From positions 6,043,387-6,107,386 of the forward strand of contig JASSKH010000024.1 in the NCBI GenBank assembly GCA_031763025.1: DNA of 64,000 bases, written 5' to 3'. Under the pieces are notes generated by a model. It was not told the DNA's origin and made no database searches. It saw only the letters and a program-made list of their open reading frames with translations. The translations under genes and the position numbers were made by a program. Source of the DNA: Macrocystis pyrifera (Eukaryota > Sar > Phaeophyceae > Laminariales > Laminariaceae). Shown in pieces: positions 1 to 63,516 of this stretch (within the stretch, counting starts at the first letter, position 1; each line of letters opens with the position of its first letter).

Positions 1-88
1 GATTATGATGATGGCGATGACGATCTGATACTGCTGTGGGCAACTACGGCAAGTAAGTTGCTGTAACACCCGCTGTGATCATTTACTA

Positions 89-193
89 TTACGGGGGACC
101 ATAGTAAATAGGACCAAATATTGTTAGTAAAAATAGGCAAATATATAAGTTTTCATGTACATCATAGGTCCTATTAACTATGGACCCCCGTAA
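89..193 (+). mobile_element. TA-MITE (TTACGGGGG family), copy 1
   Basis: This is the reference copy of a roughly 105-bp non-autonomous DNA transposon. It starts TTACGGGGGACCATAGTAAA and ends in the inverted complement (TATGGACCCCCGTAA). About 30 bp at each end pair, around an A/T-rich core containing AAATATATAAG. A TA dinucleotide precedes the left end; the right flank reads TG, so the target duplication is imperfect here. There is no coding capacity. Terminal structure and TA target fit the Tc1/mariner superfamily by inference. Confidence 0.85.
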
Positions 194-639
194 TGTTAAT
201 ATTGGTTGGTATCAAAACCACTGCCTTTCGATACGTAAATAAATACAGCAGTACGCAACTTAAAAAATTTCGACTTTCAGCTCCCCACCATCCGAGTAGT
301 TTTTCCGCCGTTTCGTCTGACAGCCTTTATTTATACACAAGAACATAACAAAACAACGAAACATATATGAAAAAAAAAAAAAAATCAAAAACGAGCAAAA
401 AAATAAACCTCGCCGGCTCCTCGTCGTCCTTCGCGGGCAGAGCACCTATTAATAGAGCACACCTGCCGGTTTATTTTTACTGAAGTGAACGAAGATAAAA
501 AAAAAGGACAAAACACTACGAACATAGCACCAATTGTTCAACATGCTTTTGTAATTTCTTCCTGAGGTATGTTTCCACTACAGAGTTTACTGCAGGCTGT
601 CCTGCGACGACGGACTATGATATTTGGATTTTTTTGGGA
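194..639. other. A/T-rich spacer, no gene seen
   Basis: Poly-A runs (368-385) and low-complexity A/T DNA. The short open frames here have no recognisable domain or coding pattern. Confidence 0.5.
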
Positions 640-730
640 TTTTTACGACTGCAGAGGCCTGATTTGGGACAAACCAGTCAAATAATTCAAGCATTGGGGG
701 TCCGAAACGGGACTGCAGTAGTCCTATTAA
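640..730. mobile_element. TTAA-MITE (piggyBac-like palindrome), degenerate copy
   Basis: Diverged copy of the 90-bp palindromic family. The left arm has ACGACTGCAGAGGC and GGGACAAACC; the right arm has AAACGGGACTGCAGT. The TTAA flanks are not preserved. Confidence 0.6.
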
Positions 731-1132
731 TAGAAGGGTCTGGGGTGTGATATGAGAACAACAACAACAACAACAACAGCGGCACACATGTCCAGCGGCT
801 TGATGCTTTACTATCGGAGGAAAAAAAAGGTGTACGAGTATCTGCATGGCACTTTAGCCGTTGATAGGCATGTACACGCCCAACGGCTTATTGTTCACTA
901 CCGGGGTAATGGAGAAGAAAAACAAAACGAAACAAGACAGAGTGACCTGTGTGACATTTTAGCCATTGCGAGGAAAGCCCTCCCTTCCCGGCTCGCTCCG
1001 TGGTTGGACCACGTTCCATCGTACGAATATCAACAAGAGGGGTTTTTGGCTGAAACTGCGAGGGAGTTTTGGCTGAAACTGCCTTACCAGGTAATAGTAG
1101 GGTCTACTGCGGGGTAGGTTTTACGTGTAAAT
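731..1132. other. Unassigned DNA
   Basis: Contains (CAA)n at 760-778 and a tandem GTTTTGGCTGAAACTG motif (1046-1082). No gene is supported. Confidence 0.4.
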
Positions 1133-2000
1133 AAAACTACTTGCATACATCTTTCTCTCTGAGCGTGCGCGGCTGGCACATCCCTGGCCTCTCAGAGCTC
1201 CCACTTGGACACCGCCTCCTTCTATTACTTGCCGGACATTTCCAGTGGTTCCTTGTTTTCTCTATTTTTTTTGCCCTTTCAGTTCTTTGTCCGTTTTTTC
1301 TTCTTTTGATTCGAGTGCGTGCGTGTACTCAGAGCACGGCACCGCGGGCGAGCCCGGCGCCGTCGCGGATGTCAGCGGGTGCTGGCCGGTAGAAGGGGGG
1401 TTAGACGGAGCGCGGTCGCCGTTTTCATGGCTAGGCTTGAATGGGCTTTGTCTGGCCTCCTCGTGTAGAATCATCTATATTATGTACGAGTCCATAAGGG
1501 TCGTTTTGGTCTGCAAAATAATATTCATGCGGTTCTTATTTTTGCGACCAAGCTGAAGTTCACAGAGAGAGCTACACAGTCTTAGCACCAACACTGTCGA
1601 GCTGGCGAACGAGGGCCGCGGTGAGCACCGGGCTTCACGCGAGGCGGGCGACGAGGCTCACTGTGGCAGAGAGGAAGGAAAAAGCCTTACCCGGACCGAA
1701 TCGGTGGCGAGGTAGTCGCGAGAGAGGCGCGGGCGGCGTACGAGGCTGAGAGAGAAGCTATCTTGTTCGATTTTTTTTTGTTTTCGATCGGTGCAAGGTG
1801 TTCCGAATCAGGTAGAATATAATTGCACGAGAGAAGGGGATTTTTTTTTCTTTCTGAAATTCTCGGTTTAATTTTCATTGTTTTCGCAATGCTGCTGTGC
1901 CGTGCTGTGCTTTCTCTTTCGTACATACAGCATACCTGGTATCAAAATGAGAAAATAAGTACCCTACGAGTACCTGGGGTATGTACGTACGTACGGCATG
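1133..2000. repeat. 880-bp dispersed repeat, arm A of an inverted pair
   Basis: This stretch recurs in opposite orientation at 6345-7232. Shared blocks run in the same order: TCTCTGAGCGTGC, CATCCCTGGCCTCTCAGAGC, the ACTTGCCGGAC block, the GCGGTCGCCGTTTTC block, CACCAACA(C/T)TGTCGAGC, the TTTCGGTTT/TTCATTGTTTT block and GTACGTACGTAC. By eye identity is roughly 75-85 percent with indels. No open frame is conserved between the arms, so it is more likely a non-coding repeat, or the terminal arm of a larger element, than a gene. Confidence 0.7.
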
Positions 2001-2583
2001 CGGCGTTCGGGTTCTTTTCCTGAAAGGAGCAAGGAGCTCTTGGCATTTGCAAATCGCCTGTTTGCACCTAATTGTTTGGACCGTGTGATCCATTCTTCTT
2101 TTTCGTGAGCGAGCGTAGCGGGCGGAAGCGCCCCCGACGAAAAGCGCTTGTACCTCGTGCTGGTACAACAGCAGTGTACTAAACTGTACCATATAATTGT
2201 TTACTGCACTCGATCCAAGTAGTAGTGTGTCCCAAAAGCGTGGGTGCAGCTCTAAAAGCGATAAAACGTATAAATCATACGAGGTACACAACACTCTGGC
2301 CAATAATATAACTACCGCTATAATTACCACAATATATTCTAAACGTGTACCATATTCGGGGCAAGGGTGGGAGTATATACGGTGAACCTGTCTTCGTCAG
2401 CTCAAGCTGGCTAACCAATCGCGTTTTTTTAAGTGTTCAACTGCTCTGCCCATCTTGAGCAGATTAGACAATACACGTGTTTCGAAGGATACGTTGCCCG
2501 GATTGTTTCCTAGGGGTTTGGGGAAAAACGGAAAAAAAAAAAAAAACGCAAGAGTTGAAACTTTGGCAGACTGTTTCCCGCTC
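2001..2583. other. Unassigned DNA between repeats
   Basis: A GC-rich block with TGAGCGAGCGTAGCGGGCGG (2106-2125) resembles sequence near 6120-6160 and 6320-6345, possibly the outer end of the inverted duplication. A poly-A run lies at 2530-2545. No gene seen. Confidence 0.4.
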
Positions 2584-3040
2584 CACCAGCAGTGTTTACG
2601 ACCTGGCCGACTGGGTGGAGCATCTACGAAATGGTCGATTGACAGTCCACACGAACTCCTCATTACATCCTAGAACATTCCGAGAATTTTCCCAGGCGGT
2701 CGGGGTTAGGGTTGGAGCCAGCAGTGTTTTACGACTCACTTGGCACAGGTTTGAAATAATGGTTGATTGATGATAGTCCGCACTAACTCTTCATTACACC
2801 CTAGAACATTCCGAGAGTTCTCCCAGGCGGTCGGGGATAAGGTTCGGCCAGCAGTGTTTTACGACTCACTCGGCCCACCTTTAAAACAGGGTTGGGCCAG
2901 CAGTGTTTTACGACTTACTTGGCCCACCTTTACAACAAAGGTTGATTGATAGTCTGCACTATAATAACTCCTCACTACAACCTGTTACTAGAACATTCCG
3001 AGAATCTTCGCAGGCGGTCGGGGATAGGTTTATTAGGTCA
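2584..3040. repeat. Tandem repeat, about 130-bp units (3 full, 1 partial)
   Basis: Units start near 2584, 2718, 2847 (partial, 48 bp) and 2895. Each carries CCAGCAGTGTTTTACGAC, then CTAGAACATTCCGAGA and CCAGGCGGTCGGGG. Open frames across it simply repeat the unit and are not taken as genes. Confidence 0.8.
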
Positions 3041-4135
3041 GGGCTAGTGTCAGTGGTGGAACATATTTCAAGACCATCCGGTTTCAGGCCATAGTAGGGA
3101 TAGAGACCAGGAAAATCGGCTTTGTCATAAGAAAAAACTACTCGGAATTAGTACAGGATCATTATTTCAGTATTGCAGTGGTAGGGCGAAAGGTGAGACC
3201 AAGACGGGGATAAGACCACGTAAAATTGTCCTTGAGGTCACGAGGTGGTCATAAAATTGGTGCATCACAGCTGTAAAACCAACCGTATGTAAACTATGCA
3301 GTCAAGCTGTGTTCGGCGCCTTCATCTTACGTCGACCTGACCCGCCCCCCCCCCCCCCCCAGCACCTGAGCCCCTACCATGGACCTTGGAAACAGATCAG
3401 GGACCTTGGAAATGAGATTACAAACCTTAGGAATAAGTTGCACTCGCTTAAACACGAGTAGCGGGGCGACTGGTCGCGGCTGCAGCCAGTCACCACCAAA
3501 GTCAGATTCAAAACACAAAAAAAGGCACTTCAATTAAAAAAAGAAATTGAACAGCTCGGAAAAACGTCATGCCCTACAGGCGGGAATCGAACTCAGCGTT
3601 GTCGCCACTTCCGAACACGGCGGCCGCCAATATGCCGTCGCCCGAAAGACGCCCACATGCCCACGGCGGCACCAATTATTATTCGTTCGACCACGGCGCC
3701 CTATTAACAGAGCAAGTTTCTAACTCCGCAGCCGCAGGCGCCACATGATATTGATGAGACTCCGCCACGACCCACGCGACCTTCACCCGCCGAGTTTGGC
3801 CGTTTTTTATAGGCAAAAAGAAAGGGCAGTCACGAATGATGATTCTCCGGATGTTCCTAGAACTCTCGTCTTCGAAGGACTTACCGCTGTCTGCAGCAGC
3901 ACGACCTCGTGCCCCCCTTTTTCTTTGTTCCGGTCACAATTTTAACGACCACACTGGTCGGTCTACACGGACGGGCTATCACGGCCACCAGTCCGAGCGG
4001 AGGGTCAACCAAAACACAACAAAAATTATAGAGACTACAAAAAGGTAAAGGTGGTGTTGGACCGCGGATGTTGGTGTAGGTACCCCTGTCTTCCCGGAGC
4101 CACGACGAAGACAGACAACTACTGCTGTAGTAGTA
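3041..4135. other. Unassigned DNA with poly-C tract and a pol III-like box
   Basis: Poly-C at 3342-3360. On the - strand near 3565-3680 there is GAGTTCGATTCCCGCC, which fits an internal B box, with a possible A box upstream. This could be a second tRNA-derived SINE, but no second copy was found in the window. No protein gene supported. Confidence 0.4.
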
Positions 4136-42500: not shown

Positions 42501-45173
42501 TTTTTGTTCGGGACTGTTGTTCGGCATATTGTCGACACATTGTTGACACCTTGTGGCCATCATGTGGGCGTTTTTTCAGCACCGTCAAAGTTGCGCCTTG
42601 CCGCAAAAGTCTTGTGGTCGTCTTGTGGGCACCCTTGTGGGCACCTTGTGGTCCATTGCTTGGGAACCTTGTGGTCCAGTTCGTGGGCACCTTATGCGGT
42701 GTAGGGCGTCGCGACCACGCTCCCCGCCGAACCGAATGACACGGTATTCGGGCGTTCTGCCCGTGCCTCAAAACAGCAAATACCGGTGCTCGACACAGGC
42801 TTTCTGTTTTCTGTGAGAAGCAAGCCTGCTCAAGGTCGGGTGGTTTGCGCCCCCCTGCCCTCTCCCCCCGGTGTACCTAATTATGCCATTCTGCTGCATG
42901 AGAGACTTCGTGATCGACCCCCTCGCTCCATCCCTTGCCTCCCGTGATTGTTTTTTCGCGACGTGCTACGCTCTCCGCGATTCGCGCTTTTCGACGCGCA
43001 CTAAGGTTTGGGATTTGAACGCGGACCCCCGGCTTCCCTTCGACGACGCGACGTACGACGCCGTTGTGTGCACGGTGTCGGTGCAGTACCTGCAGCAACC
43101 CGAGGCCGTCTTCGCCGACGTGCAGAGAGTGCTCAAGTGAGGGAGTTCCATTTTCGTGGCGATTGGGGCACGGCCGAGCCCCCCCCCCCCCCAACACCTC
43201 ACGGTGCTTCGCGCTTGATGCAACCAATGTCTGTGTGGTCGGTGAAAACCTGACGTGCTCCGGCCCAGCATTGTAGGGATGCGTGCGTCTATGGTCATAC
43301 GAATACGGCCATACATGATTTGAATACACCCCCCCCCCCCCCGCCTGCTCCGCCGAACGCTTATCCATTGCGTATTCTCCCGCAAGAAACTAAAAAATAA
43401 TGCGCCTCAGGTTTCATTGCATGCAGTCGATTTGTTATTTCTCATATCCGCTGTTCGCCCACGAGATGCACTGCACGATACTCCCTTGTGCCCATGCTTC
43501 GCGCATTCCCCTTGACGCGTACCCCCTCAACCCCCCCCCCCCCCCGTACGTACGTCCCAAAACCCCATCACACTTTTGTGTGCGGTGTTTAAACCCCCCC
43601 GTCCCCCGGTCTCCTACTGCGGAATGTTCTGGGAAATCTTCTCATGGCTGTAATGGGCTCGTGGTCGGCTCCGTCACTACGGCGTCACTCCTTCCCCTGC
43701 CGCTGCTGCTGCTACTGCTGCTCCTGCTTTGAATCGTTCTGGGCATATTCCTGCCGATGAAACGGACGCGTGGTCGGTACTGTCTATTCCTGCGTTGTTG
43801 TTGCTGCTGCTGCTGCTGCTACTGGCAATCGACGGCGTGGTGCACGCGGAAACCCGGACTCCTGCTGCACATACGATATTTATTGTTGATGTACCGTCGG
43901 CATAATTTTCTTTTCGCGACGGTGGTGACGACGACTTTGTTTCTGTTGAAAATCTGGGGCCGGCGAAGACCTGGAGGGGTGGCAATATTCTCGTTCTCTA
44001 ACCGAATGTTTTCGGACAAGGTGATTATATTGATGAGTGCTGTGATGAATACGCGAGAACACATGCGGCCTAAAGTGTACCGTTTCGGGGAAACCCAAGT
44101 CTGGCGTTGCTAAGGCAGGAGGGACACATGGTTGCCAAAATCGACCTCACGCGCTCAGGTTTCATGCACAGCGTGTCACACCCTCTGATTTTGTTTTCGG
44201 GATTTGTAGGTCAAGTCGATCCTCGGCGGATGTCGGAGTCCAAGCGCACATGGATATTAGCCCTCTCTTCTCTAGAACTTCCTTCGCTGATAGTCTCAAT
44301 ATATACCAGTTCGCCAGAGTCAAAGTGATAACAGTCGAGAGTTCGACCAGCGCATAAGCTCTCGTTGTATTCAGTGTCGTTTTGGAGTGCGCCCATTATT
44401 TATAGTGCATCTTGCGCATCATGACGAGAAATATTTAGTTTCTCGCGTCATCGCATGATGTGTGTCAACGACGCCGGCCAGGCTATCAAAGGGTGGATCA
44501 ACCGGACGGGAAAAGGAAGGACGCGCCTGGTGACTGAGTACTTCAACGCAGCCGGAGGGTTCGGCAAACCGGAGTCCGTCCAGCGCGCCGCCCAGTGAGT
44601 CCATAGACCTGGAGAGTACAACGTGTATATGTATCTGATGCTGTACTGTACGCGCATACGGTGGTTTCACTTCATTCTCTTGTCCAAGGGGTACGAGTTG
44701 CTTCGGTCAGTCTGTGCCTTATTGTGTGCCGGGTACGGTTTTTTTTTTCCCCTCGAGGTTTTCTCCCTCTCCCGGATTATTGGAGCCTGTCCTGTGACCA
44801 CTGCGTTAGATCTCGGCAATGACTATTGTGAGAAGAACAACAATAGCAGCAGAGCGAGAGAAGGATAGAAAGAGAGCGAGGTAAAGAGAGATGCCGCATC
44901 CATGCCGTGTCGGTGCTTTATTGCGGAGGGGTGAGTGATTGGAGGGCTGGTTGGGTGGATGGGTGGGTGGTTGACGGCACGTTCTTTAGGGTAAGTTCTA
45001 AACACCTCCGTTTAGTTGTCTCGCCTCCGCCCCCTGCGCTACTGTAGTCGGTTTGTCGCGCCGAGGCATGAAGAGTGTGTGCTAGCTGCCGTTATCGGAT
45101 GTTCTCCGTCTGTGTGCAGAATTTTAGTTGCTGCTTAAACACGTAGTATGCTGGGCTGTTGCTGTTGCTGTCG

Positions 45174-52610: not shown

Positions 52611-53002
52611 CCTTGCACGTCCTCCCTTTCTCTAAATCCCCAATCGTTTTCACGTGCTTTTCAGGTCATCACCTCTCCCCTTTCTTAACTTTGGTCCGAT
52701 TATTTGGGGCATCTCCCCCTCCCCTCCCCGTCCGTTTTCGGGGGGAGTTACTTCTCCCTACGATTTCGTCTTCCTCTCGGAGACATCTGTATGTGTCCCT
52801 ACTTCTTCCTCCGTTCTTCGGAATACAACTCTCCCTCGTTTTCGCCCGCTGTAGTGGCGTTTTTCATGGCATCTCTCACATCTCTCTCTTTTCTTTCTTT
52901 CGTCAGTTTTTCGGAGCATTTCTCCCTTATATTATTACTTATTCCTGACTTTTGTTTCGGCACGAAACCTCCGGGGGTTTTTTTTTCGTCCACCGTGAGG
53001 GC

Positions 53003-53163
53003 ATACCAGGCATCAATCACGTCCGCTGATACCAGGTATCAATCACGTCAGCTGATACCAGGTATCAATCACGTCAGCTGATACCAGGTATCAATCACGT
53101 CAGCTGATACCAAGTATTAATCACGTCCGCTGATACCAGGTATCAATCACGGCATCTGATCAC
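53003..53163. repeat. 26-bp tandem repeat, about six units
   Basis: ATACCAGGTATCAATCACGT followed by CAGCTG, nearly perfect for four units and degenerate at the ends. The stop codon of the candidate - strand exon lies at its right border. Confidence 0.9.
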
Positions 53164-53444
53164 GGCATCTGATCCAGCGCTCGAACCAAAAATGCGGCGA
53201 AAGCTGCGTACCCGACCTCCTGGTCCTCCAGCCTGCCACGCCCCTCAGCGAACCCTGTCGCAAGGAAGACGCCCCTCGCAGCAAACCCGCCGCATCCTCC
53301 CGATTTCGCGCCGGAGGACAACCCCGCCTCCCCGTTATACACCCTAGCGTCGCCTTTTCCTCTATTGAAAACCATCACTCCGCGATCCCCTCCATCCTCG
53401 TAATCGTCGACGTCTTCGCAGCTGTAACGGTAGGCTCCGTTTAC
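53160..53444 (-). CDS. Candidate C-terminal exon of an unrecognised gene
   Basis: From an acceptor at about 53445 (GGTGTCGCAG), or an internal one at GTTACAG near 53420, the - strand stays open to a TGA at 53160. It encodes about 94 residues: YSCEDVDDYEDGGDRGVMVF, then a Gly-rich stretch (GAKSGGCGGFAARGVFLATG), then RLEDQEVGYAAFAAFLVRAL before the stop. The mixed composition and balanced acids and bases look like protein rather than simple sequence. No domain is recognised. Possible partners are the - strand exons at 54223-54351 and 55942-56097, but phases agree only for some acceptor choices. Confidence 0.42.
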   Translation of the reverse strand, partial: VNGAYRYSCEDVDDYEDGGDRGVMVFNRGKGDARVYNGEAGLSSGAKSGGCGGFAARGVFLATGFAEGRGRLEDQEVGYAAFAAFLVRALDQMP

Positions 53445-53883: not shown

Positions 53884-54032
53884 GCGGGCGCCCATCTGGA
53901 AAAGGATGCGTGGTCAATGGTCATACGACTGAACCAAGCGACGAACGATTTTTAGTAAATACATCGCTGCTATCCTCCAGCGGCATGGTAAACATAAACC
54001 CAATGAGTGCGCCCCCCCCCCCCCCCCCCCCG
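53884..54032 (+). mobile_element. Poly-C retroelement tail, diverged copy
   Basis: GGATGCGTGGTCAATGGTCA, TACGACTGAACCAAGCGACG and AATGAGTGCGCCCCC match the 3' tail of the LINE at 57503-60760. A poly-C tract follows directly, and another lies 110 bp upstream. Confidence 0.6.
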
Positions 54033-55095: not shown

Positions 55096-55484
55096 AGTCG
55101 TAAAGGCAGAAACAGCAGTCGGAGCGCCCAAATATTTTTCGATGCCGAAGCAACCCCCGAAAGAATCGCTTCACCCTTTTTTTCCCGTAGATGGGACGCA
55201 ACAGAATACAATTGAGCACACAAAACGAACAAGACGCCAACAACAACACCCTGCATAACTACTGTACAAAATATTCGACAGCCCATGAGGGTTTGGGAGA
55301 TAATATCGTTTCACACCTCTGGCAGATAGATCATGATCTGTCTGATCTATCTGTCTACTGAAGATGATCTAGTTTATCACCCGTCATTGTGAGAGATTGT
55401 GCAGGATTTGTCTTATAGGGCAGATACAACCCAGGAAGGAAGAGCGTTAGATCATGCAGATCATACAGCTCCCACCCGGCAAAA

Positions 55485-55547
55485 TGAGCTAGATCATACA
55501 GATCATACAGATCATACAGATCATACAGATCATACAGATCATACGTG
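55485..55547. repeat. 9-bp tandem repeat GATCATACA
   Basis: Seven consecutive units (one frame reads Asp-His-Thr). A diverged CTGATCTATCTG patch precedes it at 55320-55370. Confidence 0.9.
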
Positions 55548-55761
55548 CAGATCAGTTATCTATCTGCGCACCCTGCCTCGAATAACAACTTAAGCCAGAC
55601 CCTGCCTAGTTAGGTGATGTCGCGAACTGTAAAACCGCCTCGTCAGCTCCTCCTGCCCCCCCCTCCAGCCACCTCAGGCAATCCCCTCCCGTCCCCCTAT
55701 CCTCGCCTGAACCCCCCCTCCCCTAAGAGTACACCCCCTCCCCCCCCCGTAGCAAAACGCG

Positions 55762-55916
55762 TCTACGTAACATATGGAAACATGTAATGAGCGCCCAACT
55801 GCCCGAGGTGTCTCTATTAGCAGTGCGAACGGTGCTCCATCTCGAAAGGGATGCGTGGTCAACGGTCAAAAGACTAAGGCAAGCAACAAATGAGTACGCC
55901 CCCCCCCCCCCGCCCC
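55762..55916 (+). mobile_element. Poly-C LINE 3' fragment (truncated copy)
   Basis: The last roughly 140 bp of the LINE at 57503-60760 in the opposite orientation: ATGGAAACATGTAATGAGCG, GAGGTGTCTCTATTAGCAGT, AAAGGGATGCGTGGTCAACG, AGGCAAGCAACAAATGAGTA CG, then poly-C. On its 5' side sits AGAGTACACCCCCTCCCCCC, which looks like the poly-C tail of another copy. Confidence 0.8.
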
Positions 55917-56584: not shown

Positions 56585-57286
56585 ACAAAGAGCAGTAACA
56601 GCCGCAACAACACCTGCAGCATACGACAAACCAGGTAGAAATTTACGCACGTAGCTAAACAAAACACAAGCACAAACAAACGCTGCCGCGCCTGCCCCCC
56701 CCCCTCCCCCCTCCTCCCGGAAAAAAAAACCCTTCCTGGAATAAATTTAATTGCTCGACAAAAAATAAACAAATACAAACAAATACAAACCCAAAATGCC
56801 CCTCCCTCCCCTCCCCCTCTCCCCTCCCCCCCTCCCCCCCCCCTTTCTTCCCCCTTCCCCCCTCCCCAAAAAAAAGCAACAAACAAACGACAACAAAAAG
56901 CTCAAGCTTGCTCTCTGATTTTGGTCCTCTGGCTCTCGTTCTCTGGCCTATTGCCCTCTCCCTTCCCGAAACCCACCTTCCTGCCGATATGGCCGAGGCC
57001 ACCTTATCCGGAAACCCGGTGAGCGCCCCGTGATTGGAGGCCGACACTACCCGGCGAAGGCAGAAGGGGAGGACGCCCCTCGCCCCGGCCATCGCTGCCG
57101 ACAAGGTAGGGGTTCGGTCAGGGGTGATGGCCTTGGGAAAGCCGTGGGGTCCGACCAGGTCGTCCAGCTGTGCATGTACGATGCCGCAGGACGACGATTT
57201 GGGTGTTGTCGGTTGTGTTCAGGATTGCAGGATTGGTTGGGAGTGGGAGTGGGGCGCGGGGAGCTGGGGGGGGGGGGTACTCGATA
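56583..57286. other. C-rich DNA, possible coding fragment
   Basis: 56694-56870 is poly-pyrimidine (CCCCTCC). Around 56990-57100 a - strand frame encodes RGVLPFCLRRVVSASNHGAL, but no splice sites or homology support it. Confidence 0.35.
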
Positions 57287-57428
57287 GGAGAGATGTACTC
57301 GATCTCATGCATGGCCGTAGTCGCATGACCATAGACCCTCGAATCCCTACAATGCCGGGACGGAGCACGTCGGGTTTTCACCGACTAGGCAGACATTACT
57401 TGCACCAAGCGCGACGCGCCGGGGGGGG
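57287..57428 (-). mobile_element. Poly-C SINE-like element next to the LINE
   Basis: On the - strand: TCGCGCTTGGTGCAAGTAAT, GTCGGTGAAAACCCGACGTG, CATTGTAGGGATTCGAGG, TCTATGGTCATGCGACTACG, GAGATCGAGTACATC and GAGTACCCCC. It is about 80 percent identical by eye to 43196-43325. Poly-C (poly-G on +) lies at both ends, at 57269-57279 and 57421-57497. Confidence 0.72.
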
Positions 57429-57454
57429 GGGGGGGGGGGTGGGGTTGGTTGGGG

Positions 57455-57497
<43 letters not shown>
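57421..57497. repeat. Long poly-G tract (poly-C tail of the LINE)
   Basis: About 75 nt, nearly all G on the + strand, with GGTTGGTTGGGGTTGGGG interruptions. It separates the LINE 3' end from the neighbouring SINE-like element. Confidence 0.9.
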
Positions 57498-57502
57498 CGT
57501 AC

Positions 57503-60500
57503 TCATTTGTTGCTTGCCTTAGTCATTTGACCATGGACCACGCATCCCTTTCGAGACGGAGCACCGTTCCTACTCCTAATAGAGACACCTCCAACAATTG
57601 GGCGCTCATTACGTTGTTTCCATGTATTACATAGAAAGTTTTTGCTAATCTTATCCCCTTCCTGTTTGGTCTCCTGTGGCCACCATCTATCTCCTAGGAT
57701 AGCGACCGTTTTCTCGCTGCTATTCATTGTATCAAACTCCTCCATGTCACATTCGTCTATTTTCCTCATCTCCTCTTCTAACACATCCCGTTCCTCCTTG
57801 TATATTTCACATTCTCTTACTATGTGAGTTCTACTCTCTATCACTTTGCCACACGGGCACATCTGTGCGTCTACTTCCTCCTCTTCCCGGCTACTGGTGT
57901 ACCTCTTTCTTCTTTCTGGCAGGTCCAGGTCCCCTACACGAAAACGCAGTTTCAGCGTTTTCGCGAAGTCCATTGGGCCATGCAAATACGTTTTCATTCC
58001 TATTCCTTCCCTCAATCCCCCGTATATCTCCAAGTGTTTTCCCGATTCCACCTTGTTTCTTAGCGCTAGCCTTTCCCTTCTTTCTATCGTTTCTTCTAGT
58101 TCTGCCTTGTACCTCCCCAAACTTCCCGGCGGACATCATCTCTACTTGGTTTCCCCCTAGGTCTTTCCATACTTTCTCAACTACGCCATCCCACCTTATT
58201 CCAGCTCGTCCTTTTGATACTTTCTCCCATACAGCTCTATCAACTATGGCTGGCAACCTCTTTTTTGGCATGTTCCTTACTTTATATTGCCAGTTCAACT
58301 TTCTCATGTCTCTATTTGTCTTGAGTGGGCGCATTCCCAGTTCTGCTCTTAATACTGTATTACTAGTCGTACTTGAGCATCTTGGGATTTTTTTAGCTGC
58401 TGTCATTTGTACTGTTTCCAACTGTTTTACGAGTTTCGCGTTCCCTTCCCATACTTCTCCTGCATATTCTAGCTTTGGTACTACCACATTCATCAAGATA
58501 CATCTCTTAATCCTAGTGTCAAGGTTCGGGTCTGTTAGGATCGCATCCATCTTGCCTACTTGTGCTTTACCCTTTCCTATTACGTTTACTATATGTGTAT
58601 CCCAAGAGCAATCTTTTGAGATCTCTACGCCAAGGTATGTATACTGGTCTACGATCGGCAATTCATCTTCTCCCCACTTCCAACTGAAATTTACCGGGTT
58701 TACCTTATCTTCGTTGCAAACAGCTACTGCGCATTTCTTGACGTTCGCCGTCACCCTCCATTTCCTGGTGAATTCTAGCGCCTTCTCTATTTGTTTCTGC
58801 AATCCTTCGGGTGTTTCTGATATCCCCACGAAGTCATCCGCAAACATCAATCCCGACACCGTATCTTCCCCTACCGTGACTCCCTGCCTTGCTCCCTCGA
58901 CTGCTACTATCAGGTCGTTAATATATATCTTGAATAAGTTAGGTGACAACGTACATCCCTGTGCAACACCTTGTAAAATATCAACATACTTCGATATTTC
59001 CCCGTCCAGCATCACAGCACTTGTCGCACATTCCGTCATATTTTTCATCATTCTCCACATCTTTCCTCTGATTCCTATTTCCCACAGTTTTTTCCACAAT
59101 CCATTTCTCCATACTGTGTCGTAGGCTTTCTGCACATCTAGAAAGAAACAGTACGTTGTTAGTCCCGCGTCTTTCCTACCTTGAATAATCTTACCTAGGT
59201 GTACACATGGTCTACGCAGCTACGGTTTGGCCTAAACCCTGCTTGTCCTTCGCTTATTTTGTCTTCCTTCTCCATCATCGTTCCCATTCTATCGTTCAAA
59301 ATCTTACAAAATGTTTTGCCTACTGTGTTTAGTAGCGTTATCCCTCTATAGTTCCCCGGGTCAGCCTTATCTCCTTTCTTGAATAAATTTACTACTACTC
59401 CTTCTCTCCACCTCCTAGGTGCGTACTCGTTTTTTTTTTCATATCCAGTTATACAACATAACCATCATGGTAAGCATTCCTTCTCCCCCGTACTTCATAA
59501 ATTCATTCACTATTTGGTCTGCCCCTGCTGCCTTTCTATTCTTAAGTTTAGCTACACACTTCTTTACCTCTTCCCTTGTGAACTCTCTCTGTAACCCTCC
59601 CGAACCACTGTCTTCCCTTTCTGATGTATCTACGTTCGCCTCTGCCCACGCGTTGATTTCCTTCTCGAATTCTGCATCGAACGTTTCGTTGGCTGTGGGT
59701 GTTCCTAGCTTTCGGAAATGTTCTACTAGTACCTCCCTTTTCCCCTTCGAACTACTACCCATTTTACCGTTCTGTGCTCTTAGAGTAGCTATTCCCGTGT
59801 CTGCCTCTCCTGCTTGTCTGCCAAGTATCCCTTTTATCCCTACCCACATCTGCTTCATCCCGCCCTCAAAGTCTTCATTTGTTTTATTTACTACCTGGTA
59901 CGTCTTTCCATATCCCTTTCTTCTTCTTCTCTACCATATCTTTTACTTTCTTTCTAGCTATAGCATATTCCTCCCACCCTGTCGAAGTTTTACTCGATGT
60001 ATACCTTGCGTGTGCCTTTCTCCTTGCTCTTATGGCCTCTTTCACTTCTTCATCATCCCACCATTTTACCGCTCTGTTGCATACTATCAACTTCTTCCCT
60101 ATTACTTTACTTGCTGTGGTCTTGACCAACTGCTCCCGTCCTTCTATTATCCTAGCTCCTGCATCATCCCTTTCTATATCGTTTCTTGTTGTACCTATTC
60201 TTTCCAACAGCTCGGAAAATTTCTCTGCATTTTTGGCCATCTCTTCTTGGAACTCTTCCCGTTTCTCTTTTACTTCTAGTTTACCTATTCTCCATCGATA
60301 CAATTTCCTACCTCTTCTATGTTTGATAACTCTCGTCTGTTGACTGTCTGTCCATATTAGACAGTGATCCGTAGTTCCTGTGTCCGCTGCGCATACATGT
60401 AGTTCCGTTTCCTTACCACTTCCATTTTCTACTACTATAAAGTCAAGGATAGAGCTTTCTCCCTTTTGTATGCACGGTCTAGTCCATTCCAGTTCTGCCT

Positions 60501-60760
60501 TTTTTACTCTGTCGTTCAACGTTTTCATCTCGTTGTGCTTGAGGAACTTCAACATCTCTTCCCCATTCTTATTCTTTGTTACTTCCCCATACTGTCCAAC
60601 GTTCTCGTTCAGTTTGCTTGCCCTCCCAACTCTTGAGTTAAAATCTCCCACTATTACTACTTCTCCTTGCCTCTTATACTTCTGTACATCTACTGCTACT
60701 TCTCCGAACTTCCTCTGTATATCTTTTATCGTATTCTTCGACTCTGGGGGCATATATACG
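57503..60760 (-). mobile_element. LINE with poly-C 3' end: endonuclease, reverse transcriptase and zinc-knuckle remnant
   Basis: On the - strand the element encodes, in order: the C-terminal part of an apurinic-type endonuclease (VYMPPES, VVIVGDFNSRVG near 60640, SILDFIVVENG, TDHCLIW); a reverse transcriptase (EGQAGFRPNRSC, KAYDTVW, GVAQGCTLSPNLF, catalytic FADD near 58840, YTYLGVEIS); and a distal Cys/His knuckle (CPCGKVIESRTHIVRECEIY near 57860-57800). The frame breaks near 59900, 59440, 59195 and 58118, each explained by a 1-nt indel. The N-terminal third of the endonuclease is missing, so the copy is 5' truncated and dead. The final TGA (57503-57505) is followed by GTACG and then poly-C, so there is almost no 3' UTR. 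Poly-C also abuts the 5' end. Non-LTR class is certain; the clade is not assigned. Confidence 0.92.
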
Positions 60761-60796
60761 GTTGGGGAGGGGGGGGGGGGGGGGGGGGGGGGGGTA
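60761..60796. repeat. Poly-G tract at the LINE 5' boundary
   Basis: About 35 nt of G on + (C on the element strand), directly joined to the truncated endonuclease coding sequence. Confidence 0.88.
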
Positions 60797-60976
60797 TGGG
60801 GGGTGTTGAGAAACGTTTGGGACATTTAAACTAGGGTAAGACGTAGCCTGCCCCAGATAAGAATTTGGGCCTGGGCCCGGAATAATATTTTGTGAAGTGG
60901 TGTCGCGTACCATACAGCAGTAGGTACCGGCACCAATCTACACGCCTGTTGGTGTTGTGGCTATGAACGGTAGGTA

Positions 60977-61083
60977 TTACGGGGGGGGGCATAGTAAATA
61001 GGACCTAGGGTACACACAAAAACCTATATATTTCCCTATTTTTACCAACAATATTCGGTCCTATTTACTATGGTCCCCCGTAA
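60977..61083 (-). mobile_element. TA-MITE copy 12
   Basis: TTACGGGGGGGGGCATAG to GGTCCCCCGTAA with TA on both sides. The G run is expanded. Confidence 0.87.
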
Positions 61084-61361
61084 TAGTATCAAATAGCACG
61101 TATATACGTACGTGTTTGAACCGTGTCTACGTTTGGGGCGAACGCATCCTCCCACCCGCTGCTCTCATAAGACGGTCAGGCCAGAGGCTCGGGGGCTAGC
61201 TAGACCTGCAGCAGCAGTGGTCTCAACGATATCGTCCAAGACGAACAAAACGAGAACAGGTTCCGTAAAACATTGCGAACTTGCCAACCTCAACCTTCTA
61301 GAACGAGAGCCGCAAGCCCGCGCGAGAGAGCGGGTCGCGCGACTCCTCGCGGTGTGCAGCA
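61084..61361. other. Unassigned DNA
   Basis: A + strand frame at 61210-61350 encodes a mixed stretch (KTNKTRTGSVKHCELANLNL) with a GTGTGC after it. Without a partner exon or homology it is not called. Confidence 0.35.
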
Positions 61362-61674
61362 GTGGCCCCTCTATAGCGCCGGCTGCCCGCCATAGTGCCC
61401 TGTGAAATAAATCACTTGGCGCAGATGGAATTCACCAGCGCGGTAGCAAGAATAGGTCCATCGTTAATAGGACCAAATATTGTCACTAAAAATAGGCAAA
61501 TATATAGGTTTTTATGTATACCATAGGTCCTAATAACTATGGAACTATTCTTGCTATTCAGTGCGGCAGTGTGCGGAGTAATTAGTGCCGGTTGCCGGTA
61601 TACACAGTACAGGTATTGTTGCCTGCCGCACACTGCTGTACCGGCGCACTATATAGAGGGACCACTATTACGGG
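61362..61674. mobile_element. GTGGYCCCTCTATA-family element carrying a nested MITE
   Basis: Termini GTGGCCCCTCTATAGCGCCG and GCACTATATAGAGGGACCAC are inverted partners. The interior includes AGTGCGGCAGTGTGCGGAGT, shared with 4136-4530 and 27653-27928. A variant TA-MITE lies inside at 61445-61555. Confidence 0.75.
61445..61555 (+). mobile_element. TA-MITE variant with altered ends (copy 13)
   Basis: The family core is intact (TTAATAGGACCAAATATTGT to CCATAGGTCCTAATAACTAT). The outer ends, however, are AGCAAGAATAG and CTATTCTTGCT, a perfect new inverted repeat replacing TTACGGGGG. Confidence 0.75.
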
Positions 61675-61677
61675 GGG

Positions 61678-61773
61678 TCCATAGTTAATAGGACCTATGG
61701 TATACATAAAAACCAATATATTCACCTATTTTTACTAACAATATTTGGTCCTATTTACTATGGTCCCCCGTAA
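61678..61773 (-). mobile_element. TA-MITE copy 14
   Basis: TTACGGGGGGTCCATAG to GGTCCCCCGTAA. It starts within a few bases of the neighbouring element's right end. Confidence 0.85.
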
Positions 61774-61959
61774 CGCTATTCATACTGTATGTAGCTCGGG
61801 AAAAATAGTTTTTTTTTGCCCCGTCCCGCCCCAGCACCCCCGCGGCTGGTAACCGCCATATACAAATAACCTTCTTGGGGGATGGTGCGATGGTTGGTGG
61901 CCGAGTTACAACGGTTGATCCTCTGTCCGTGCTGCTGGACGTCTCTTGCCATTAAACTA

Positions 61960-62055
61960 TTACGGGGGACCATAGGTAATAGGACCAAATACTGTTCGTA
62001 AAAAATGGCAAATATATAGGTTTTTGTGTGTGCTGTAGGTCCTATTTACTATGGG
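61960..62055 (+). mobile_element. TA-MITE copy 15, right end lost
   Basis: TTACGGGGGACCATAGG left. The match stops after TATTTACTATGGG, so the terminal CCCCGTAA is missing. Confidence 0.8.
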
Positions 62056-62503
62056 CATAGCACCATGGGCATACTTGAGGGTTTCTCTTAGGAGGAGTGT
62101 AACAGGCGCATCACTATTTTATAGGCGAAAGTTAACAAAGCACCAAAGGGCATCATCGAAAAGCTTGTTTGTTTGTATGTTTGTTCGTCTGTTTGTTTTT
62201 CGGAAAACAAAGAGCAGAATGTGGATACACACCCACTGAAGCCGCAAAATGAGTGCTAACCAATTGGCTGTCGGTTTCGGGCATCGCTTCAATTAATCGC
62301 CATCCGACGGGACGTGCTTGCTTCACGCCTCACACCAGCGCCCAGCCTGAAGGGCACAGATTGCTTCAAGCTAGAGTTGGCACATTTTTTTTGCAGCGCA
62401 GCACAGAGAACACAGTAAAATAGCAAAAACTAAAGTCATCATCATCATTCCGCGTAATGTTTCATATATCACACCATAAAAAAACAATGAAAAAACGCCT
62501 CAC
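62056..62503. other. Probable intron or 3' part of the edge gene
   Basis: On the - strand this follows the donor GTGAGGCG at 62503. No next exon was identified. TTTGTTTGT repeats occur at 62167-62200. Confidence 0.4.
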
Positions 62504-62597
62504 CTGCACTACGAAAACCCGGTTGACTTTGCGCATAAGTCGCTCCACATCAGCCCGGGACAGCCCCCCCTTGTGTCCTTCTTCCACAGCGGCGTTT
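62504..62597 (-). CDS. Internal exon of an unrecognised gene (edge gene, downstream exon)
   Basis: On the - strand, acceptor GGTGCAG and donor GTGAGGCG enclose one leading base and 31 codons: NAAVEEGHKGGLSRADVERL then MRKVNRVFVVQ. The leading base completes the Gly codon left open by the exon at 63517-63765, so the two are phase-matched across a 919-bp intron. The charged, helical pattern is typical of a globular protein. The next exon was not found. Confidence 0.6.
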
Positions 62598-63154
62598 CTG
62601 CACCCCATCGAGGCAACAGCACAAACGGAGCCCCATTTCCGACAACACAAGAGGCGGGGGTGGGGTGGGGTGGGGCAGGGAGTCTGATCAGCTTTTACTC
62701 GACTGCTTTAAACCTTACACAACTATTACAGCAATCAGATCCCACGGTGGACACCAAAAGCAAACGTCCCTCCCTAGGTCGACACCCAAAATTTGGTCCT
62801 GGTTAACATCTCCCCGCAATGAAAAAAGGCGTGGAGAGAAGTCCAGCCGACTCTCACCCGTATAAATTGCCCGGCCCGCGGGGCAAGCCGCGAGCCACAC
62901 AGGCGTAAGATAGCAAAACGGCCATTGATTTGTGGAAAATCACGCCATCATCACGTTTTTTTTTTTTCATTCCGAAAATGAAAGACAGCAGCGTGAAAGA
63001 GTCAAGACCACTGCACGATCCTCCCTGAAGAAACAGTATCAATGTAGGCTATGTACAGAGTATACCTTTAGCAAACATAGTACGTCAGGAGATCGCGGGG
63101 GCGAGGACTCAGGTTGGCTTACTCGCGTGTGTCAAATATTACATACATTAATAT

Positions 63155-63256
63155 TAAGGGGGACCATACTAAATAGGACCAAATATTGTCACTAAAAATG
63201 GGAAATATACAGGTTTTTGTGTGTACCGTAGGTCCTATTTACTATGGTCTCCTGCA
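63155..63256 (+). mobile_element. TA-MITE copy 16 in an intron
   Basis: Degenerate ends (TTAAGGGGGACCATAC and CTATGGTCTCCTGCAA) with an intact core. It lies in the intron between the two edge-gene exons, in the opposite orientation to the gene. Confidence 0.8.
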
Positions 63257-63516
63257 ACTGTACATAACATGGTACTACAGTAGTACCAGAGAAACACTTG
63301 AGTACTACTACTGCTGTAGGTACCAGGAATACATCAACCAAGTTTGGCCGATTCGTACGGCGGACATAATTGTAACAAGAAGAAAAAAGACAAGGAAAAA
63401 GACACGCTTTGCAACAAACAACGATGACCCATCCCCCTCCCAGCACCCCACCCCCCTGAGAACCCCTGCCAAAAAAAAAAAACACCTCCATCCCCCTAAG
63501 AAAACTAAGCACTCAC

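What the first reader, a model, noticed from the sequence alone, without database searches (positions are those of the whole stretch)
57287..60796. Retroelements bracketed by poly-C on both sides: possible poly-C-targeted LINE/SINE system
The LINE ends 5 nt after its stop codon in a long poly-C tract, and poly-C also abuts its truncated 5' end. The SINE-like elements at 57287-57428 and 43181-43341, and the tail fragments at 55762-55916 and 53884-54032, have the same GAGTACNCCCC end and also lie next to upstream poly-C. LINE tails are normally poly-A or short A-rich repeats, so a C-homopolymer tail plus insertion next to existing poly-C suggests the element primes on poly-G/poly-C microsatellites. 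This would also explain the many poly-C tracts in the window.
Basis: partly seen in the sequence, partly recalled or inferred. Interest (0 to 1): 0.85.

Follow-up and report, generated by a model that had tools for sequence, protein, structure and literature searches.

The report
Kelp jumping genes landing in poly-C
In giant kelp, a family of copy-and-paste jumping genes and its smaller hitch-hiker end in runs of the letter C and insert into existing runs of C, including the C tails of older copies, so they stack up one behind another; this looks like a homopolymer version of a known targeting habit.

Summary
A LINE (RT, weakly matched AP-type endonuclease) and a ~520-bp SINE-like partner share a ~65-nt tail closing in GAGTAC and end in poly-C. 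On one strand of the genome, 1703 of 2203 LINE ends and 2080 of 2535 SINE ends have C6 within 3 nt; 1576 of 2017 SINE heads have C6 5-35 nt upstream, 3 of 2017 have G6. In 298 kb read in full, 69 of 99 truncated copies have C6 within 40 nt upstream, 1 has G6; close neighbours share orientation in 42 of 43 pairs. At one SINE insertion, 10 of 10 uninterrupted relatives carry a C-rich tract at that point. So poly-C is the target, in fixed orientation. Best mechanism: nicked poly-G primes reverse transcription on C-ended RNA; this chemistry is inferred. The paper searches made listed no C-homopolymer target. A new variant of microsatellite-targeted LINE/SINE pairs. Most poly-C runs in this window do not touch recognised copies.

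The parts
57498..60768 (-). 5'-truncated, frame-broken LINE copy (endonuclease remnant, RT, C-terminal part)
   Evidence: its 3' end has 190 candidate and 40 scored places in the genome, itself included
57891..59135 (-). RT open frame of the LINE copy
   Evidence: Pfam RVT_1 E 8e-18; PDB sequence hits include R2 and L1 ORF2p
59884..60768 (-). endonuclease remnant (the open frame runs to 60825, into the flank)
   Evidence: Pfam Exo_endo_phos_2 E 3.5e-6, 27.3 bits against a cut-off of 27.4
57503..58120 (-). C-terminal open frame; its stop codon lies 5 nt before the poly-C
   Evidence: no Pfam match
57498..57563 (-). shared LINE/SINE 3' tail, ~65 nt, closing in GAGTACG
   Evidence: LINE 3206-3271 is matched by the SINE profile at about 427-508; predicted fold
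57457..57497 (-). C41 tract at the LINE 3' end
60769..60794 (-). C26 tract at the LINE 5' end
57278..57420 (-). 5'-truncated SINE-like copy lying in the poly-C downstream of the LINE
57421..57439 (-). C19 tract at the SINE 5' end
57266..57277 (-). C12 tract at the SINE 3' end
43193..43328 (+). second 5'-truncated SINE-like copy, C14 on both sides
43179..43192 (+). C14 tract at the 5' end of the second SINE copy
43329..43342 (+). C14 tract at the 3' end of the second SINE copy
55750..55898 (+). 5'-truncated LINE tail (LINE 3122-3271), C9 before and C13 after
55727..55748 (+). GAGTACA plus C-rich end of a further copy directly upstream of that tail
53892..54031 (+). degenerate LINE tail (57 nt aligned), end motif GAGTGCG, then C20

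Best explanation
A LINE and a SINE-like parasite that shares its 3' tail insert into poly-C tracts in one fixed orientation, so that poly-C stands on the sense strand on both sides. Inferred mechanism, target-primed reverse transcription: the LINE endonuclease nicks the poly-G strand inside the tract; the poly-G 3' end anneals to the C run at the 3' end of the LINE or SINE RNA and primes reverse transcription next to the recognised ~65-nt tail; the C-strand is cut a little downstream, giving target duplications that start with C and run into the flank. RT often stops early, so many copies are 5'-truncated. The new copy leaves C tracts on both sides, which serve as targets for further insertions; this yields head-to-tail chains. 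Shown: both junctions, the orientation, the chains, the shared tail, a pre-existing C tract at one locus. Inferred: nick strand, priming, how the RNA gets its C run.
For: 3' ends: C6 within 3 nt at 1703 of 2203 LINE ends and 2080 of 2535 SINE ends, forward strand, with anchor words that hold no poly-C. 5' ends: 1576 of 2017 SINE heads have C6 5-35 nt upstream, 3 of 2017 have G6 (reverse strand). In 298 kb: C8 or more within 40 nt upstream at 61 of 112 copies, G8 0 of 112; random 40-mers away from copies, C8 1.2% of 20000; ends of an unrelated inverted-repeat element, C8 0 of 72 and G8 1 of 72. Truncated copies only: C6 69 of 99, G6 1, A6 0, T6 4. Copies with no element found within 150 bp upstream: C8 36 of 69. 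Chains: 42 same-strand neighbours, 1 opposite. Empty site: 10 of 10 fetched relatives have a C-rich tract at the point where the L052 SINE sits. Target duplications that reach past the C run, e.g. words of 11 nt at contig 200 and 8 nt at contig 214; shared words on average longer than in all of 300 shuffles.
Against: 24 of 99 truncated copies have no C6 run within 150 nt upstream; by eye, some of these 5' ends are cut by the inverted-repeat element, and one (L042) continues upstream of the query used. 4 of 90 copies with both ends readable have C6 at neither end. The first test for target duplications failed (220 of 2000 shuffles reached the observed value); the second was designed after it, and 11 of its 36 copies share no word at all. 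Empty sites were read at only one locus, from paralogues, not alleles. Exact search words count near-consensus copies only and include DNA-level duplicates. No biochemical or expression data.
Confidence: 0.85

Rival explanations
1. Template jumping: at one insertion the RT finishes one RNA and jumps to the C tail of another, so the chains with poly-C between them arise in a single event and not by repeated targeting.
For: Close neighbours share orientation in 42 of 43 pairs; divergence differences within pairs are somewhat smaller than in shuffled pairs (0.037 against 0.046, 3.2% of shuffles at or below, 38 pairs; 0.034 against 0.042, 7.2%, for the 23 pairs with longer alignments).
Against: Many neighbours differ widely in divergence (e.g. 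SINE 0.015 beside LINE 0.121); copies with no element upstream also have C8 (36 of 69); the L052 insertion lies in a C tract that its uninterrupted relatives have. It may add to the chains but cannot explain the solo copies.
Confidence: 0.12
2. The endonuclease has no taste for poly-C; insertion goes into breaks at fragile poly-G tracts (G-quadruplex sites), where an exposed poly-G end primes on the C-ended RNA without nicking by the element.
For: Fixed orientation and C on both sides would look alike; at some 5' joints the shared word runs into the first bases of the element, as microhomology would.
Against: Short target duplications at some sites fit staggered nicks better than breaks; but they are not shown for most copies, and the endonuclease reading itself rests on Pfam matches below cut-off.
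Confidence: 0.15
3. The upstream C is made by the element (extra C copied from the tail, or a C-rich 5' end of the RNA), not by the target.
For: Full-length SINE heads at several listed places share the same bases after the C run, so for them the exact 5' border is uncertain.
Against: C runs also lie next to scattered truncation points (69 of 99); adding C to the cDNA end would give G on the sense strand, seen in 1 of 99 (reasoning); uninterrupted relatives at one locus already have the tract.
Confidence: 0.05
4. The poly-C runs are assembly or sequencing artefacts.
For: The assembly was made from long reads with Canu and polished with Racon, so homopolymer lengths are unreliable.
Against: Strand-specific excess of 1576 against 3 at SINE heads, and dependence on the elements' ends.
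Confidence: 0.01

Closest known systems
RTE-X LINEs and the ~600-bp RTEX-N1 element of the brown alga Ectocarpus (PMC12477816, passages seen)
   Same: Brown alga; very abundant short non-autonomous element sharing the LINE's 3' end; origin of its 5' part unknown.
   Different: The passages seen give no 3' repeat or insertion target for it, and the word homopolymer has 0 occurrences in that main text; supplements were not read. Whether the kelp LINE is RTE-X was not tested.
Microsatellite-targeted non-LTR retrotransposons (Togen into (TG)n, some HERO families: PMC4640811, passages seen; Dong, Waldo, Kibi: targets recalled)
   Same: Insertion inside a simple repeat; the 3' end meets the same repeat.
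   Different: Target here is a C homopolymer; the families of that paper carry a restriction-like endonuclease, this one matches AP-type profiles weakly.
Mammalian L1 with Alu (poly-A tail; poly-T primer strand; mechanism recalled)
   Same: Homopolymer at the RNA 3' end facing a complementary homopolymer in the target; 5' truncation; short target duplications that begin in the homopolymer; a trans-mobilised short element.
   Different: C in place of A; longer pre-existing tracts and not short T-rich sites; tail shared by sequence with the partner (stringent type).
Stringent-type LINE/SINE pairs, e.g. BovB and L2 with their SINEs (review PMC3747384, passages seen)
   Same: SINE 3' end derived from the LINE 3' end, ending in a short repeat.
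   Different: That review's table of plant and green-algal LINE tails lists (CA)n, (CAA)n, (CCAT)n, (ACAATG)n and (CTTGTAA)n for six green-algal RTEX families, no poly-C.

Membership tests
non-LTR retrotransposon (LINE) | reverse transcriptase of the non-LTR kind | tested here: met
   RVT_1 E 8e-18; PDB sequence hits include R2 and L1 ORF2p
non-LTR retrotransposon (LINE) | AP-type endonuclease | tested here: inconclusive
   Exo_endo_phos_2 27.3 bits against cut-off 27.4 in the window copy; 22.7 bits, and Exo_endo_phos 18.7 bits, both below cut-off, in L042; no PDB sequence hit
non-LTR retrotransposon (LINE) | frequent 5' truncation with a constant 3' end | tested here: met
   57 LINE 5' ends scattered over query positions 1 to 3208, the first being the window copy itself; 46 of 50 readable LINE 3' ends followed by C6 or more
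non-LTR retrotransposon (LINE) | target site duplications | tested here: inconclusive
   first test: 220 of 2000 shuffles reach the value; second, post hoc: 0 of 300; a few clear cases
RTE-X clade | position in an RT tree with reference LINEs | not tested
   no named reference LINE sequences were on hand
stringent LINE/SINE pair | SINE 3' end homologous to the LINE 3' end | tested here: met
   LINE tails matched by SINE profile positions about 427-508 in many copies; alignment of 83 tails
SINE (strict) | RNA polymerase III promoter of tRNA, 5S or 7SL origin | tested here: not met
   no tRNA in L071, L052, L053, L066, L036, L037; L071, L052, L053 gave one Rfam match, E 0.32, far below gathering; internal T run. 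Hence SINE-like, not SINE in the strict sense
microsatellite-targeted non-LTR retrotransposon | most copies lie within one simple repeat in fixed orientation | tested here: met
microsatellite-targeted non-LTR retrotransposon | repeat present at the empty site | tested here: met
   10 of 10 fetched paralogous empty sites at one locus; one locus only
microsatellite-targeted non-LTR retrotransposon | endonuclease cuts the repeat | not testable with these tools
   needs biochemistry

The most novel reading that the evidence does not exclude
The elements encode no C tail at all: their RNA borrows its 3' C run by reading through into the tract in which the parent copy sits, and each insertion splits one C tract into two and may lengthen it. 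Target, primer and tail would then be the same sequence, and the system would seed and multiply its own landing sites, which is why copies grow into head-to-tail chains.
Probability: 0.35. Interest if true: 0.78.

Novelty: new variant of a known kind. Interest (0 to 1): 0.64.

Why it matters
The microsatellite targets of LINEs that I know of (partly recalled) are repeats of longer units, and the familiar homopolymer tail is poly-A. A C-homopolymer target is unexpected because poly-G/poly-C forms stable folds and should be hard to unwind and copy. Thousands of near-consensus copies with readable junctions, a ~65-nt tail shared by both partners, and chains that record repeated hits make the link between 3' tail, primer and target directly testable. 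It also gives a candidate contributor to poly-C tracts in kelp genomes and a hazard for their assembly.

Tried and rejected
Relatives outside kelp: a 27-base LINE end found nothing in viral contigs and the RT protein found no relative there; the one genome-contig scan (bacteria and archaea) was not used.

Target duplications: the first local-alignment test, on 45 copies, was not significant (220 of 2000 shuffles at or above). A second test was then designed, on 36 copies: full-length SINE heads left out, shared words required to hold at least 3 non-C letters, and for chains the flank beyond the chain also tried; it passed (0 of 300). Both are reported.

Age order inside chains: upstream older 22, downstream older 16, sign test p 0.42, Wilcoxon p 0.27: no polarity, as expected if both flanking tracts are targets, so not informative. 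Empty sites within the fetched loci: 101 rows of candidate flank pairs, many of them self matches or other LINE/SINE copies, none taken as a true empty site. A repeat-flank search for a second locus (output cut, so seen in part) showed mainly the inverted-repeat element and segmental duplicates. A second insertion at the same host tract: pattern with GAGTAC 4-34 nt before a host word, 0 matches; the L052 copy itself does not carry that exact host word.

Tail structure: consensus folding of 44 LINE tails gave no signal (z 0.3), 51 SINE tails z -1.5, a joint sample of 40 z -8.4. Standard pairs fill 360 of 395, 367 of 384 and 311 of 330 cells of three helices in 66 distinct tails, but few pairs change on both sides, and in the LINE the stretch is also coding, so the fold is a proposal. 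Genome count of all C runs of 14 or more: not obtained.
Full report
WHERE. The window is bases 6043387-6107386 of contig 205 of an assembly of 537,376,219 bases in 223 contigs. The size, the contig number and the length of contig 196 (13,669,674) equal the length, contig number and N50 printed for the giant kelp Macrocystis pyrifera (PMC10498591, passages seen). That assembly was made from long reads with Canu and Racon, so exact homopolymer lengths should not be trusted.

WHAT IS IN THE WINDOW. A LINE copy lies at 57498-60768 on the minus strand. It has an RT frame (RVT_1, E 8e-18; PDB sequence hits include R2 and L1 ORF2p), an endonuclease remnant at the edge of Pfam's cut-off, its parts in different frames, and a stop codon 5 nt before C41. 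C26 lies at its 5' end. Two SINE-like copies (57278-57420 and 43193-43328) have C tracts on both sides; one sits in the poly-C that follows the LINE. A further LINE tail (55750-55898) is flanked by C9 and C13. The fragment near 53884-54032 is a decayed tail whose upstream tract is about 120 nt away. Of 30 C/G runs of 10 or more in the window, 7 lie within 150 bp of recognised copies; 23 do not, two of these flanking the decayed tail.

THE FAMILY IN THE GENOME. A search with the last 118 bases before the LINE's GTACG end, so without the poly-C, gave 190 candidates, 40 scored; 30 loci were cut. With neighbouring stretches this made 298,461 bases including the window. All 20 fetched SINE-like copies have C6 or more at or within about 10 nt of the end motif; four of the 20 share the same flank and count as one in later tallies. 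The SINE-like element is about 520 bp, with variable 5' truncation. Its 5' part matches no tRNA, and Rfam gave only one match far below gathering, so it is SINE-like in behaviour only.

JUNCTION COUNTS IN 298 KB. Profile searches gave 131 copies; copies in four loci were dropped as duplicates, leaving 127. C6 or more follows 46 of 50 readable LINE ends and 58 of 67 readable SINE ends. C8 or more lies within 40 nt upstream of 30 of 57 LINE and 31 of 55 SINE 5' ends; G8 or more in 0 of 112. Random 40-mers away from copies have C8 in 1.2% of 20000. The ends of an unrelated inverted-repeat element have C8 in 0 of 72 and G8 in 1 of 72 (Fisher p 4e-16 for 61 of 112 against 1 of 72). For the 99 truncated copies, the cleanest test, C6 occurs upstream in 69, G6 in 1, A6 in 0 and T6 in 4; of the 90 with both ends readable, 54 have C6 on both sides, 8 only at the 5' end, 24 only at the 3' end and 4 at neither. 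The nearest C6 run ends within 10 nt of the element in 63 of 99 and is absent within 150 nt in 24 of 99. Some of the 24 are not true 5' ends: by eye several are cut by the inverted-repeat element, and the L042 copy continues upstream of the query; none was removed from the counts. The sample is not random: it consists of neighbourhoods of copies like those in the window.

GENOME-WIDE COUNTS. Pattern counts are whole, but variable-gap patterns count several times on one strand, so the strand with unique anchors is used. LINE end word: 2203 forward, 1703 of them with C6 within 3 nt. SINE end word: 2535 forward, 2080 with C6. SINE head word: 2017 reverse, 1576 with C6 5-35 nt upstream, 3 with G6. 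Exact words favour near-consensus copies, and DNA-level duplicates are included (for instance an ~11-kb array on contig 125). For full-length heads the exact 5' border is uncertain, so the truncated copies carry more weight.

CHAINS. Neighbouring copies within 100 bp are in the same orientation in 42 pairs and opposite in 1, and in most the gap is C-rich. Divergences show no order along chains (22 against 16). They differ within pairs somewhat less than in shuffled pairs (0.037 against 0.046, 3.2% of shuffles at or below; 7.2% for the 23 pairs with longer alignments). That fits mainly repeated insertion into either flanking tract; template jumping may add a share. Copies with no element found within 150 bp upstream also show the tract (C8 in 36 of 69).

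EMPTY SITE. The SINE-like copy L052, with its 5' flank L071, lies antisense in the RT gene of another LINE family, whose RT has a glycine-rich linker before the YADD motif, written by G tracts. Its 3' flank gave 152 candidates and 42 matches, itself included and three of them pieces at one place. The ten best other places were fetched, about 205 bases each; all ten lack the SINE and carry a C-rich tract at the insertion point, with longest pure runs of 14, 10, 6, 13, 7, 7, 5, 16, 17 and 19. The filled site reads host flank, C20, SINE, GAGTACA, C9, host flank. So the tract was there before the SINE. It is one locus, and the empty sites are paralogues, not alleles.

TARGET DUPLICATIONS. A first test on 45 copies was not significant. 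A second, designed afterwards, looked at shared words holding at least 3 non-C letters in 36 copies: mean 3.53 against 2.32 in shuffles, none of 300 as high; 11 of the 36 share no such word. Clear cases: 11 nt at a LINE on contig 200, 8 nt on contig 214, and on contig 206 a 7-nt word that brackets a chain of five elements. These duplications start in or beside the C run and extend into the 3' flank, which is the geometry of a nick in the poly-G strand followed by a cut of the C-strand further downstream.

SHARED TAIL. The last ~65 nt of the LINE, which encode its C-terminus, match the SINE-like tail. In both, GTGCTC near the start can pair with the closing GAGTAC, with two hairpins between. 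Seven of 57 LINE 5' ends fall at 3206-3208, the start of this stretch, and none beyond, as if RT often stops at the base of the stem. Few pairs change on both sides, and LINE tails alone gave no folding signal, so the fold is a proposal.

MECHANISM. Steps shown: target, orientation, shared tail, chains, truncation. Steps inferred: nicking of poly-G by the element's endonuclease, annealing to the C run of the RNA, and the origin of that run. L1 with poly-A is the nearest mechanical parallel (recalled).

KNOWN OR NEW. Ectocarpus has RTE-X LINEs and a dominant ~600-bp partner sharing their 3' end (PMC12477816, passages); Saccharina has RTEX-1, RTE, Jockey, L1 and CRE elements (PMC4421812, passages). 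None of the passages seen mentions a C tail or target. Green-algal RTEX tails are other repeats (PMC3747384, passages). Microsatellite targets are known, e.g. (TG)n for Togen (PMC4640811, passages), and named in general in PMC5035012 (passages). Paper searches listed no paper whose title or abstract start describes a C-homopolymer target; only open-licence papers are held, and the 2004 cross-genome survey by Kojima and Fujiwara was seen only in reference lists. Verdict: a new variant of microsatellite-targeted LINE/SINE pairs.

Noticed in passing
window 60975-63260 and elsewhere: Short inverted-repeat element (GGGGGACCATAGTAAATAGGACC...), MITE-like; 72 end motifs in 298 kb; some copies appear to lie inside LINE and SINE copies.
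   Followed up: partly
L072-L081, L052: A different LINE family whose RT has a glycine-rich linker of variable length just before the YADD motif, written by G tracts.
   Followed up: partly
contig 125, about 1.377-1.623 Mb: Listed SINE heads and tails recur at about 11-kb steps with constant spacing: probably an array of large repeat units.
   Followed up: no
contig 222, 15.68-15.83 Mb (L051, L065-L067): Four SINE-like copies with the same 3' flank: a segmental duplication.
   Followed up: no
L027 and L030 (contig 218): Two paralogous LINE copies without a C tail, 3' flanks 99% identical.
   Followed up: no
LINE position 3206-3208; e.g. L006, L015: Recurrent ~65-nt mini-copies that consist only of the shared tail plus poly-C (7 of 57 LINE 5' ends).
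   Followed up: partly
298 kb of fetched sequence: 96 of 226 C/G runs of 10 or more lie more than 150 bp from any recognised copy: candidate free targets or remains of lost copies.
   Followed up: partly
window 53001-53180: Short tandem repeat with unit near TGATACCAGGTATCAATCACGTCAGC (by eye).
   Followed up: no
window 55300-55560: Repeat rich in CAGATCATA/TGATCT; a similar-looking stretch lies in the 3' flank of SINE L054.
   Followed up: no
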